Source of the DNA: Melastoma dodecandrum
Taxonomy: Eukaryota > Streptophyta > Magnoliopsida > Myrtales > Melastomataceae
DNA length: 64,000 nt
Assembly (NCBI GenBank): GCA_029817715.1
Contig: JARUPY010000469.1
Span: 62,001-126,000 of the forward strand
Reading direction: 5' to 3'
This document shows, in pieces, positions 60,206 through 63,125 of the stretch (its first letter is position 1; every line of letters begins with the position of its first letter). The translations under genes were made by a program, and so were the position numbers. The notes below the pieces were generated by a model. That model did no database searches. It was given only the letters and a program-made list of their open reading frames with translations, and was not told the DNA's origin.

Positions 60206-61437
60206 TGTCGCGGGTGGATCCCGTTTCCGATTCCATTTAAAATGGATATGCTCCCTTGACGATAAAGCTTCGGATTTTGAAAACGTGTCGGAGTCGCCAC
60301 TAACTTATTTTAAGTTCAAGTTAGAAAAACTATAGAGATTCATTAAGGTTTGGGAATTAGGGATTACTAAATCGCATGCATCACAAAGAAAAGGGATGCT
60401 TTTATCGTGTGTTTTCGATGTCCGATTTATTTGAGCTTGGTTTTAGAAGAAGCATTGTTTGACATATAAAAAAATGATCTCGAGCTCATTAATGCTTAAA
60501 ATGTCTACGTGAATCATTTTTTAGAAGAATATTTCCTGAAAGTTGATTTTGAGGCAAAAATACAAACAATCATAGATTTATTAATGCCCTTAACAGTTTC
60601 TAAGCCAAAAAAATAAATTCAATGGAGAACCGGGTGTTGTACTATTGCTCGCTCTATATAGAACGCCCCCGTTAGCGTTTGTACCTCACGGTGCCGTTTT
60701 TAGAATAGGTTTACGGCGAACCTAGCGAGCCGCTGATGTCGTAACGTTGGTGAGTGCGAAGCCATCTTCAGAAAGTCTTGATCTTCGAGAATCCAAAAAT
60801 AAACCCTCGAATATTTCGTTATCTTGAATGCGTTGAGTGGGGTGCGTGCCTTGGTTGTCCGCAAGGCACGCCCCGAGATACCTATACATAAATCGTAACG
60901 TCGAAGTAAACTATTCGATGAAATAATGGAGTATTCGAGCATGGAGAATAATAATTTAATAATTGATTAACCATCTTGTTGAAAGCGTCCCAAAAAAATA
61001 TTCCAAATTACTCATCTATAATTCCGAGGATAGAAATAATTACAAGTTGAACACAACTTACCTGAATCATGACATGCTAACAAATAATTATGTAAGAATT
61101 ATACTAGTCTTTAAAATCAATTAATTCTGACCATGTTTGCCGATTAAAAATAAATAAAGTTTCAGTCACTTTGTATTTTGAATTTATCAAAGTCACTTAC
61201 GGTAACACTACATAATTCACCCACAGAAAGATGACATTATTGGAGTAAAAAATAAAAAAATAAAATAAAATAAAATAATTAAATATTACCCATTTAGTTA
61301 GGATGAGGCAGGGGGCTTCGGCTTGCGGGTTCTGCTTATTTGGGGGGCTTTTCTAGGAGGAAATAAGGCCCGCACATGTCCTTGGAAATGGCTCGGCTGA
61401 AACTATGGCGGAGCTCGTGGTCGTGATTCCTGGGATT

Positions 61438-61910
61438 TTAATCGGGGGACATCTCGTTCTGGACAGGTCCGGTCTTACTCCAGGTTTCTTTGTCCAAACG
61501 TTCGTGTGCTGGTAGGGTATCCCAGGTAATGTCTTGTTCGGAGCTCGAGGTCTCGCTGGGCGATTTAGTGGCAGCCGAGGACGGGACCGTGCCGTAGCGA
61601 GACATGCTAGAGGGGGACCGGGGAGTTGACAGAGGCGACGGGACGGAAAACAGGTCCACCCGTCTGCACGTCTGATCCGCTCTTTTGTCGCGGCCTTGGA
61701 AGGTACAGTCGCCTGAAACGGAGAATGGCCCCTTGTCGTCGTCCAGTTCCAGGAGGGTGTGGTAAGCCATCTGTCGGGTCAACTCGTGGAGGTAGTGGTC
61801 GTCGTCTTCGTCGGCGGTGAGAAAAGACGGGTCAGCATTGCAGTCGAGATCCTCATGAGGCCGCGGTTGCTCTTCCTTGAAGAACCCACCAGCAGTCTGG
61901 ACAGGTTAAG
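61438..61910 (-). pseudogene. Unidentified coding-like fragment inside insertion F
   Basis: Minus-strand open stretch, markedly more GC-rich than its surroundings. It reads PSFLTADEDDDHYLHELTRQ then MAYHTLLELDDDKGPFS, Ser/Pro-rich LFSVPSPLSTPRSPSSMSRY, and EQDITWDTLPAHERLDKET to a stop at 61438. The composition looks like a host exon rather than retroelement sequence. I do not recognise the gene. Confidence 0.4.
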
Positions 61911-61981
61911 TCGAGTTGACAGTTCTAGCTCGTAAGATCTCGCCTGGTTTTAGTCCTCACTGAGTCGACGTTTTATTGTAG

Positions 61982-62441
61982 TGCCTCGGCACTCTTTGTG
62001 ATGCAGACACTCCGTGGCTTGTCAAGGGATGGACGAACAGATCGCCTCGATTCATCAGCCCAACAGCGAGGTGTTCGAACTGTTCAACCAGCTGTGCTTG
62101 CTCTCTGGTGGCAAGAACATTTACTTTGGTCAGGCTTCAAAAGCGTACGAGGTAAGAAGATCAGCCATGATCATCCGCGCTGCTCATAAACAATTCCTGA
62201 TCCCCAACGATGTGGTGCAGTTCTTTGCTCAGGCTGGATTCCCTCGCTTGACTTGTGATGAGATCTTCTGATTTCATTAATTTTTCAAAATTGTTTCCTC
62301 GGGGAATTTCAGTTCGAATCAATGGAAGGCCCTCTGGACAGGATGACGATGGCTGAAGCCATCCGAAGTCTTGTAGATTCCTACTGTACATCTGAGTACA
62401 GCTACGCAGCCATACAAAAAGTCGAGGAGATATCCAAAGTG
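61982..62441 (+). pseudogene. ABCG half-transporter gene fragment (captured exons)
   Basis: Exon 1 (about 61982-62151) reads SALFVMQTLRGLSRDGR, then IASIHQPNSEVFELFNQLCL and LLSGGKNIYFGQASKAYE: the end of the ABC nucleotide-binding domain with the H-loop (IHQP) of plant ABCG (WBC) lipid/cutin-type transporters. A 69-bp GT-AG intron (62152-62220) leads to FFAQAGFP, after which homology is lost. A later exon (62313-62441) gives MTMAEAIRSLVDSYCTSEYS then KVEEISKV, flanked by intron-like AG and GT. Between GRT and IASIHQP the frame is lost by a small indel near 62036-62041. It is a fragment with no Walker A or membrane domain. Confidence 0.82.
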
Positions 62442-62819
62442 GTATGTTCTTCTTCTTGGTTAGCCTAAAACCTCTTCGGTTGGTTCCTCGCATCCTCCGA
62501 CTTCTCGTTTGACTTAATTTGATCGGTTGTCCCTCTAGCTTTTGTCAGTGTATATAATTGAGTGAAATTAAAAGCAGACGGATTCATGAAAAAAATTAAA
62601 ATAGAGTGAAAGGAAAGAGTGTACCGGATTTTCGGGTAGCACAAGTCGCGGACGGAGTCGTTGAGCGTCTATATTCCAGAGAGGACGAGTTGGGGTCGTG
62701 TCGATGGATGAAAGGGGGTTCGGTCGGCTGGGATATGCCCTGATGCAATTTCTACCGAGAATACCGAGAAAATAACACTACCTTTGACGGCGAAGCCTTT
62801 TGTTGTTTTTTTTTTCTCT

Positions 62820-63110
62820 TCTCTCGTGTATGTATCTGAGTCTTGTGTGCTTAATTGTTATTTTTAATTAGATTTAATTGTTATTTTTAAGTAGTGGTTT
62901 AATTGTTATTTTTAATTAGATTTTTTATGATTTTGTGGTTTTTTTTAGTGATTTTAGATTATTTTTATTGATTTTACATGATTTTTATTGATTTTCGATG
63001 ATTTTCAATTTTTTAGTGTTTTTTTGATGATTTTCAATTTTTTTAGTGTTTTTCTAAAGATTTTCAGTTTTTCCTATTATTTTTTTGTGATTTATGTAGA
63101 AAAGAAAAAA
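62820..63110. repeat. T-rich simple repeats at the right end of insertion F
   Basis: Repeated TTAATTGTTATTTTTAAT (three times) and GATGATTTTCAATTTTTTAG (twice) units. No coding capacity. Confidence 0.7.
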
Positions 63111-63125
63111 AATTGGGTTATGACA

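What the first reader, a model, noticed from the sequence alone, without database searches (positions are those of the whole stretch)
60206..63125. LTR-type insertion carrying introns and exons of an ABCG transporter gene
The unit has TGTC...GACA ends and a perfect AGGTA target duplication, i.e. integrase-mediated insertion, yet it lacks gag/pol and contains three ABCG exon segments with at least one intact GT-AG intron (62152-62220). Retained introns argue for DNA-level capture (template switching on unspliced RNA or recombination) rather than a processed copy. Gene capture is well documented for Pack-MULEs and Helitrons but uncommon inside LTR-type ends.
Basis: partly seen in the sequence, partly recalled or inferred. 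Interest (0 to 1): 0.75.

Follow-up and report, generated by a model that had tools for sequence, protein, structure and literature searches.

The report
Solo LTR carrying captured gene fragments
The insertion is one leftover end (a solo LTR) of a retrotransposon whose long ends have picked up pieces of several host genes; in the pieces checked, those lying in the element's own reading direction have lost their introns while reversed ones have kept them.

Summary
In detail: 60206-63125 runs TGTC to GACA between AGGTA repeats and contains an ABCG fragment with introns. It is not a whole element but a solo LTR (2,920 bp). Sister copies of the locus carry either the solo LTR or a longer element between the same AGGTA repeats; full elements elsewhere have matching 5-bp duplications. 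The element is read on the minus strand. The ABCG piece (61812-62497) lies in U3, antisense, 94-96% identical to a gene on C493, two complete introns kept. Beside it lies a second captured gene (61307-61819, parent on C136), sense, two parental introns absent. Related LTRs share ends but carry other host-gene mosaics (oxysterol-binding protein, RecG, P450; ABCG24-like, kinase, HAT; HSP70, H+-ATPase; 2OG oxygenase). Of introns checked, 9 of 9 in sense pieces are absent and 3 of 3 complete ones in antisense pieces are kept. Of eight gene-gene joins examined, five share 4-9 bp. Best explanation: pieces were joined into U3, often at microhomologies, and sense introns were lost by splicing of mRNA or of the element's own RNA. 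Capture by LTR elements is known; multi-gene capture inside LTRs with a strand rule is a new variant.

The parts
60201..60205 (.). target-site duplication AGGTA, left copy
   Evidence: sister copies L009-L011 carry the same AGGTA on both sides
60206..63125 (-). solo LTR, 2920 bp, transcription direction minus
60206..60925 (-). conserved R-U5 and core-promoter end of the LTR, about 720 bp, shared with LTRs outside the ABCG group at about 88-91%
60654..60661 (-). TATA-like CTATATAG about 450 bp from the U5 end (inferred promoter, not tested)
61307..61819 (-). captured fragment of host gene 2 (unnamed), sense to the element, two parental introns (88 and 85 bp) absent
   Evidence: parent C136:5213363-5214055, 88% over the two longer blocks
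61812..62497 (+). captured ABCG transporter fragment, antisense to the element; parts of four exons
   Evidence: parent C493:1824196-1824994; ABC_tran Pfam hit E 0.0029, below the curated cutoff
61905..61981 (+). retained ABCG intron GT..AG, 77 bp
62152..62220 (+). retained ABCG intron GT..AG, 69 bp
61812..61819 (.). join between the two captured genes; CTCACC (6 bp) shared by both parents
62594..63125 (-). outer (5') end of U3, partly conserved between LTR groups; next to the polypurine-tract-like sequence in full copies
63126..63130 (.). target-site duplication AGGTA, right copy

Best explanation
60206-63125 is a solo LTR left by LTR-LTR recombination of a non-autonomous long-LTR retrotransposon transcribed on the minus strand. 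Its U3 contains a two-gene mosaic: a fragment of gene 2 in sense without its introns and an ABCG fragment in antisense with its introns. The mosaic was joined into a U3, probably at short microhomologies (reverse-transcriptase template switching, or microhomology-mediated joining of DNA; inferred). Copying of U3 into both LTRs at the next reverse transcription is established for LTR elements in general; it is seen here for other cargos at C352, C479 and C500, not for the ABCG mosaic, because the left LTR of its longer copies is cut short at about 61041. Spread by transposition is shown: the ABCG mosaic also sits in a solo LTR on C272 with its own CTAGG duplication. The element's RNA contains U3 once, so an intron in sense can be spliced out before reverse transcription and is then lost, while an intron in antisense is not recognised and persists (inferred from the strand rule and from GT/GC..AG segments lost after capture). 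In related LTRs mosaics of two to four or more gene fragments have been assembled.
For: Solo LTR: 4 copies (window, L009, L010, L011) are solo with AGGTA on both sides; in 5 places adjoining loci (L012+L022, L013+L021, L014+L018, L016+L025, L020+L017) show a longer element between AGGTA flanks, and L019 shows a sixth whose right LTR match lacks the first 80 bp. Full copies elsewhere have matching duplications: AGCTG (C352), GGACT (C479), GAAGT (C500); other solo LTRs CTAGG, GTAAT, TCGTT, CCACC, GGGTA, AAACA. Polarity: the complement at one inner end reads TGGCGACTCCGCTGGGGAC, like a primer-binding site; at the other AAAGAGGGGCAAC, like a polypurine tract. Introns absent from sense pieces, 9 of 9: gene 2 two, ORP three, RecG one, ABCG24-like one, HAT one, 2OG one. 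Complete introns kept in antisense pieces, 3 of 3: ABCG two, P450 one; antisense H+-ATPase keeps 26 nt of an intron 3' end. Fisher 0.0045 by intron; by fragment 0.036, or 0.012 with the H+-ATPase counted. Loss after capture: C129 and C479 copies share the ORP/P450 join, but the C479 copies lack a 71-nt exonic segment GTAAG..TGCAG that C129 holds; L040 lacks a GC..AG 116-nt and a GT..AG 75-nt segment present in the C546 and C64 copies of the same composite. Microhomology of 9, 9, 6, 5 and 4 bp at five joins.
Against: No RNA or activity data. Introns and fragments are not independent events, and parents were sought only for the LTR groups that had given Pfam hits. Three of eight joins examined do not show 4 bp or more: C253/ORP in L041 overlaps by 2 (against an 84% relative), and in L040 gene C/2OG and 2OG/gene B show 6- and 2-nt gaps. 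The 10-bp overlap in L023 first looked like a capture join but is a deletion between repeats, since L024 carries 691 bp more there; other joins could likewise be secondary. In L041 the ORP intron-2 loss is larger than the intron (71 nt of exon gone too); only C129 shows that join exactly. The three segments lost after capture could be deletions that happen to end in GT/GC..AG. Pfam gave host-gene domains in 5 of 11 U3 groups scanned, above the curated cutoff in only 3. Primer site, polypurine tract and TATA are read from sequence; the primer-tRNA search did not complete. HSP70, kinase and acidic fragments match single unbroken parental stretches and say nothing about splicing.
Confidence: 0.72

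Rival explanations
1. Entry step, version A: sense pieces come directly from spliced host mRNAs packaged with the element and joined by template switching; antisense pieces come from unspliced antisense or read-through RNAs. No splicing of element RNA is needed for the nine absent host introns. (A and B are two versions of the entry step of the best explanation and are not exclusive of it.)
For: The sense-fragment ends that could be judged lie in exons: gene 2 both, ORP both (the left one 2 bases inside the exon border), HAT both, ABCG24-like 3' end; RecG ends were not judged. HAT keeps only the last bases of the upstream exon joined to the next exon. Microhomology at five of eight joins.
Against: Three GT/GC..AG segments were lost after capture inside the element, so element splicing probably occurs and could explain everything.
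Confidence: 0.45
2. Entry step, version B: captures were at DNA level (repair-type joining in the genome), with sense introns later removed by splicing of element RNA.
For: Both orientations occur; the antisense ABCG piece is a nearly contiguous genomic stretch ending in an intron; loss of GT/GC..AG segments after capture is seen.
Against: No copy seen keeps any of the nine host introns, and no judged sense-fragment end lies in an intron.
Confidence: 0.4
3. The ABCG block was brought into the LTR by a nested Pack-MULE or Helitron.
For: Those elements capture gene pieces with introns (established knowledge, not from a call).
Against: Only short imperfect inverted pairs around the cargo; the adjacent fragment lacks its introns, which DNA transposons do not explain; different cargos occupy the mid-U3 of separate LTR groups.
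Confidence: 0.04
4. The unit is a complete small LTR-type element (TRIM-like) that lost gag/pol.
For: TGTC..GACA ends with a target duplication and no retrotransposon domain in the part scanned.
Against: No long direct repeats at its two ends; the same sequence is the right-hand LTR of longer elements at sister loci.
Confidence: 0.02

Closest known systems
Bs1 of maize (LTR retrotransposon with pieces of three host genes)
   Same: an LTR element with a mosaic of several host-gene fragments; review passages read in PMC13317346; the primary paper PMC2899935 is not held
   Different: the passages speak of the Bs1 element and name no cargo in its LTR; here the cargo lies in U3 and differs between LTR groups of one family
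LTR retrotransposons with captured genes in maize, rice and sorghum (PMC2774510, PMC3726574; passages read)
   Same: host gene fragments inside LTR elements
   Different: the maize survey found none with more than one standard nuclear gene under its conditions; 'intron' and 'orientation' do not occur in the main text of the rice/sorghum paper; here several genes per LTR and a strand rule
BARE-2 of barley and the Arabidopsis TRIM with a P450 fragment (review passages)
   Same: BARE-2: foreign sequence taken into an LTR, attributed to abnormal template switching; TRIM: a P450 fragment carried by an LTR element
   Different: BARE-2's donor is another retrotransposon; the TRIM case is given as a 3' transduction of one gene
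Pack-MULEs and gene-capturing Helitrons (established knowledge)
   Same: mobile mosaics of gene fragments, often with introns
   Different: DNA transposons; no sense-only intron loss expected
Large retrotransposon derivatives (LARDs) and Tat/Ogre-type elements (recalled)
   Same: long LTRs, 5-bp duplications, no detected coding domain inside
   Different: lineage not established here because no reverse transcriptase was found

Membership tests
LTR retrotransposon (solo LTR) | TG..CA ends with a short target duplication | tested here: met
LTR retrotransposon (solo LTR) | related sequence found as both ends of longer elements | tested here: met
   C352, C479, C500 LTR pairs 97.2-97.55% identical with matching duplications; at the window's sister loci the left LTR is cut short at about 61041
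LTR retrotransposon (solo LTR) | primer-binding site and polypurine tract next to the LTRs | tested here: inconclusive
   sequences of the right kind and polarity; the tRNA search did not complete
Autonomous Ty3/Gypsy (Tat/Ogre) | gag-pol with Gypsy domain order | tested here: not met
   no Pfam domain at E 0.001 in the C352 internal piece L055 (5 of 6 frames, all three of the sense strand), none at E 0.01 in L022 (6 frames); not filed as Tat/Ogre
LARD (non-autonomous large element) | long LTRs and long internal region without coding domains | tested here: inconclusive
   met where looked, but only one full copy's central 5.4 kb and 3 kb of one shortened copy were examined, plus 1.4 kb beside L040 with one sub-threshold hit (LYRM_2, E 0.0056)
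Pack-MULE / Helitron | terminal inverted repeats with a 9-bp duplication, or Helitron ends, around the cargo | tested here: inconclusive
   only short imperfect inverted pairs there; target duplications around the cargo and Helitron ends were not searched
Processed retrocopy | introns absent from the captured gene | tested here: inconclusive
   met for gene 2, not met for ABCG in the same LTR

The most novel reading that the evidence does not exclude
The U3 of this LTR family is a recurrent cargo bay: the promoter/R-U5 end and the outer U3 end are kept, while replication keeps filling or swapping the middle with new multi-gene exon mosaics. RNA splicing edits the sense half and spares the antisense half, so each LTR records which strand was transcribed, and it can yield new chimeric sense reading frames and antisense RNA to living host genes.
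Probability: 0.5. Interest if true: 0.8.

Novelty: new variant of a known kind. Interest (0 to 1): 0.62.

Why it matters
A captured fragment in U3 can be copied into both LTRs, survives as a solo LTR after the element is gone, and sits beside the element's promoter. The strand rule for introns gives a simple sequence test for an RNA stage in gene capture, and copies caught with and without the same GT/GC..AG segment make splicing inside a retrotransposon's life cycle directly testable. Antisense fragments 94-96% identical to a host gene are natural candidates for small-RNA effects on the parent (not tested).

Tried and rejected
Considered and dropped: stand-alone small LTR unit (sister loci show it is one LTR); nested Pack-MULE or Helitron (no inverted-repeat ends seen, intronless neighbour); simple processed copy (ABCG introns kept). 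I first read the 71-nt segment of the C129 ORP copy as a retained intron; alignment showed it to be ORP exon bounded by GT..AG that the C479 copies have lost. I first read an 89-bp gap in P450 as an intron; it is coding sequence missing from the LTR copy, while the real GC-AG intron is kept. I first counted the CATGGCAAAG overlap in L023 as a capture join; L024 shows it is a deletion between repeats. Pfam hits NAD-GH in L029 (above its cutoff; taken as the complement of HSP70, recalled), DUF4192 in L036, DUF7584 in L036 and DUF6988 in L043 (all three below cutoff) were treated as noise; DUF4220 in L029 (below cutoff) was not followed. Hits in L027 to copia gag and Stress-antifung may lie outside its LTR, whose right end I could not find. 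L042 showed no matching duplication.

Odds: confidence in the best explanation was lowered from 0.75 to 0.72 on recount, because three of eight joins lack 4 bp of shared sequence.

Not reached: primer-tRNA gene, autonomous partner, empty site, parents for U3 groups without Pfam hits (the L036 search did not complete). U3 groups never scanned with Pfam: L026, L031/L042, L035, L038, L039, L045. Four genome searches remained unused because the machine was busy.

Coordinates note: my scripts cut the window LTR at 63122, three bases short of its end at 63125; only those three bases are affected.
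Full report
WHAT IS THERE. The window lies at G000:C62:62001-126000 in an unnamed 373-Mb genome; plant origin is my inference from gene content. Positions 60206-63125 begin TGTC, end GACA, and are flanked by AGGTA at 60201-60205 and 63126-63130. A search with the left part gave 723 candidate places, of which 40 were scored and matched, the window included: 22 begin at 60206, 7 within six bases of it, 10 include left-flank sequence, 1 begins inside. Searches fetched 38 regions covering the other 39 matches; one search compared them with the window.

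IT IS A SOLO LTR. On C493 and C525 the surrounding locus is repeated. Four copies (window, L009, L010, L011) carry the LTR between two AGGTA. At five other repeats (L012+L022, L013+L021, L014+L018, L016+L025, L020+L017) the left AGGTA is followed by a piece matching 60206 to about 61041, then other sequence, then a second 60206 start preceded by a shared internal end (AGTCGCCAAATC, in L012 AGTCGCCAAATA), and finally GACA or a close form and AGGTA. L019 shows the same with an incomplete right LTR match. So solo and longer states of one insertion coexist; in the longer ones only the right LTR shows the ABCG cargo. The window LTR differs from the sister solo LTRs by K2P about 0.025 and from the LTRs of the longer copies by 0.039-0.052. 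Elsewhere, LTR pairs at C352, C479 and C500 have matching duplications AGCTG, GGACT and GAAGT, share the same middle and are 97.20%, 97.55% and 97.37% identical (K2P 0.0286, 0.0250, 0.0269), about 1-2 million years at rates recalled from the plant literature (7e-9 to 1.3e-8). Six further single LTRs (L015, L023, L024, L028, L033, L046) have perfect 5-bp duplications. L042 does not, and for several others only one end or no right end was found.

POLARITY. Next to the right LTR the complementary strand reads TGGCGACTCCGCTGGGGAC, as a primer-binding site should; next to the left LTR it reads AAAGAGGGGCAAC, as a polypurine tract should. The element is therefore read on the window's minus strand. 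A TATA-like CTATATAG lies about 450 bp from the U5 end. U3 is inferred to run from 63125 down to about 60660, with the ABCG fragment inside it in antisense. A primer tRNA of the arginine type is recalled, not tested.

NO CODING DOMAIN FOUND INSIDE. Pfam gave nothing at E 0.01 in 3 kb of L022 (6 frames) and nothing at E 0.001 in a 5.4-kb central piece of the C352 copy (5 of 6 frames, including all three of the sense strand); beside L040 there was one sub-threshold LYRM_2 hit. The family looks non-autonomous; its protein source is unknown. The insertion sits in an older retrotransposon, judged by a gag hit upstream below its cutoff (E 0.00024) and a protease-like reading downstream (my reading; no Pfam hit there).

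THE ABCG PIECE. Parent C493:1824196-1824994, within L047. The LTR matches it over 434 columns (96%) and 253 columns (94%), with 113 bp of parent missing between. Two introns are complete in the LTR (77 and 69 bp). By eye the parent's exons read through without stops in the region seen.

THE SECOND GENE. 61307-61819 matches C136:5213363-5214055 at 88% over 319 and 145 columns and 92% over 60, in sense to the element. Two parental introns, GTGAGA..ACAG (88 bp) and GTAAGA..TGCAG (85 bp), are absent; the second join has two or three base changes. The gene gave no Pfam hit. Both parents share CTCACC at the join with ABCG.

RELATED LTRs. LTRs of the family share about 715 bp at the U5 end and, in most pairs, roughly 150-550 bp at the outer U3 end; for the window and L028 no such outer match was listed. 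The middle differs between groups. Six-frame Pfam scans of 11 groups gave host-gene domains in 5: above the curated cutoff in L023, L041 and L029, below it in W/L027 and L040, where DNA matches to parents settle the case. Six gave none that I trust (L028, L033, L036, L037, L043, L046) (of L024 only a 720-bp piece in 4 frames). At least six further groups were not scanned. Parents were found for pieces in L041, L023, L029 and L040. L041: RecG and oxysterol-binding protein (ORP) in sense, P450 in antisense, plus unidentified pieces. L023: ABCG24-like, receptor-like kinase, an acidic protein and HAT, all in sense. L029: HSP70 and H+-ATPase in antisense. L040: a 2OG oxygenase and two further genes or repeats (B, C) in sense. 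Names beyond Pfam names are recalled from motifs.

THE STRAND RULE. Host introns with parent and borders checked, sense: gene 2 (2), ORP (159, 90, 110 bp), RecG (about 169 bp), ABCG24-like (79 bp), HAT (90 bp), 2OG (170 bp): 9 of 9 absent. Antisense: ABCG (2) and P450 (79 bp; GC-AG in the parent, GT-AA in the LTR): 3 of 3 kept. The antisense H+-ATPase piece keeps 26 nt of an intron's 3' end next to 322 bp missing. Fisher exact 0.0045 by intron; 0.036 by fragment (6 against 2), 0.012 with the H+-ATPase added. Events within one LTR are not independent. The kinase, acidic and HSP70 pieces match single unbroken parental stretches and do not bear on the rule.

LOSS AFTER CAPTURE. The C129 copy (L053) and the C479 copies (L041, L044) share the ORP/P450 join. 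C129 has the three ORP exon-exon joins; the C479 copies lack a further 71 nt of exon beginning GTAAG and ending TGCAG. Either C129's state was spliced again, or an unspliced capture was spliced in two ways; both need splicing inside the element, unless the loss is a chance deletion. L040 lacks a GC..AG 116-nt and a GT..AG 75-nt segment that the C546 and C64 copies of the same composite hold; C546 lies beside a family R-U5 end (82%), C64 showed none in the piece fetched. The 75-nt segment may be exon rather than host intron.

JOINS. Eight joins had both sides matched. Five share bases between the parents: acidic/HAT AATT 4, kinase/acidic GAGGA 5 (the LTR has one change), gene 2/ABCG CTCACC 6, ORP/P450 GGATGAAGC 9, H+-ATPase/HSP70 CCATTGAGG 9. 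One shares 2 (C253 relative/ORP), and two in L040 show gaps of 6 and 2 nt (gene C/2OG, 2OG/gene B). A chance overlap of 4 or more has probability about 0.016 each under equal base use. The product printed used six joins, all favourable and one later withdrawn, and I do not use it.

MECHANISM. Shown: solo LTR; antisense ABCG with introns; sense neighbour without introns; the mosaic in an independent solo LTR on C272 (CTAGG) and further places; GT/GC..AG segments lost after capture. Inferred: polarity-based U3 location, entry by template switching or microhomology joining, and the spliceosome as agent. Whether sense pieces arrived as mRNA or lost introns later is not settled; both may occur.

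LITERATURE. The maize survey (PMC2774510, passages) counts 425 LTR elements with gene fragments and, under its conditions, none with more than one standard nuclear gene. A 2026 review (PMC13317346, passages) describes Bs1 with three host genes, a TRIM with a P450 fragment and BARE-2, whose LTR took in Wis-2 sequence. PMC3726574 (12 of 20 places), PMC11963269 (4 places) and PMC4029996 (one passage) were read in part. Nine searches listed no paper whose title or shown start of abstract describes host-gene mosaics inside LTRs with strand-dependent introns; two of the lists were cut (10 of 18 and 12 of 38 papers), and the library holds only open-licence papers, so this is weak evidence of novelty.

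Noticed in passing
C493:6733100-6924600 and C525:27100-94800: The locus around the insertion is repeated, with about 16-48 kb between neighbouring ABCG-LTR copies on C493; solo and longer states of the same insertion coexist.
   Followed up: partly
L024 versus L023: L024 carries 691 bp more between the ABCG24-like and kinase pieces; L023 looks like a deletion between two CATGGCAAAG repeats.
   Followed up: yes
L023:2750-3500: A long sense reading frame runs through the acidic piece into HAT (by eye), a possible chimeric protein; not tested for expression or selection.
   Followed up: no
C603:2204902-2206202 and 2248599-2249899: Two L040-type stretches 100% identical over 1301 bp, about 44 kb apart on the same strand: a recent duplication or a very young LTR pair.
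   Followed up: no
L027:2259-5990: Shares the window LTR up to 61960, then diverges; nearby hits to copia gag and Stress-antifung may be outside the LTR.
   Followed up: no
window 58167-58406: Weak gag match (below the Pfam cutoff) in the retrotransposon that was hit by the insertion.
   Followed up: no
C118:1588200-1592200 (L049): A gene 2 copy with the first bases of ABCG in a different arrangement of LTR parts, suggesting rearranged or truncated relatives.
   Followed up: partly
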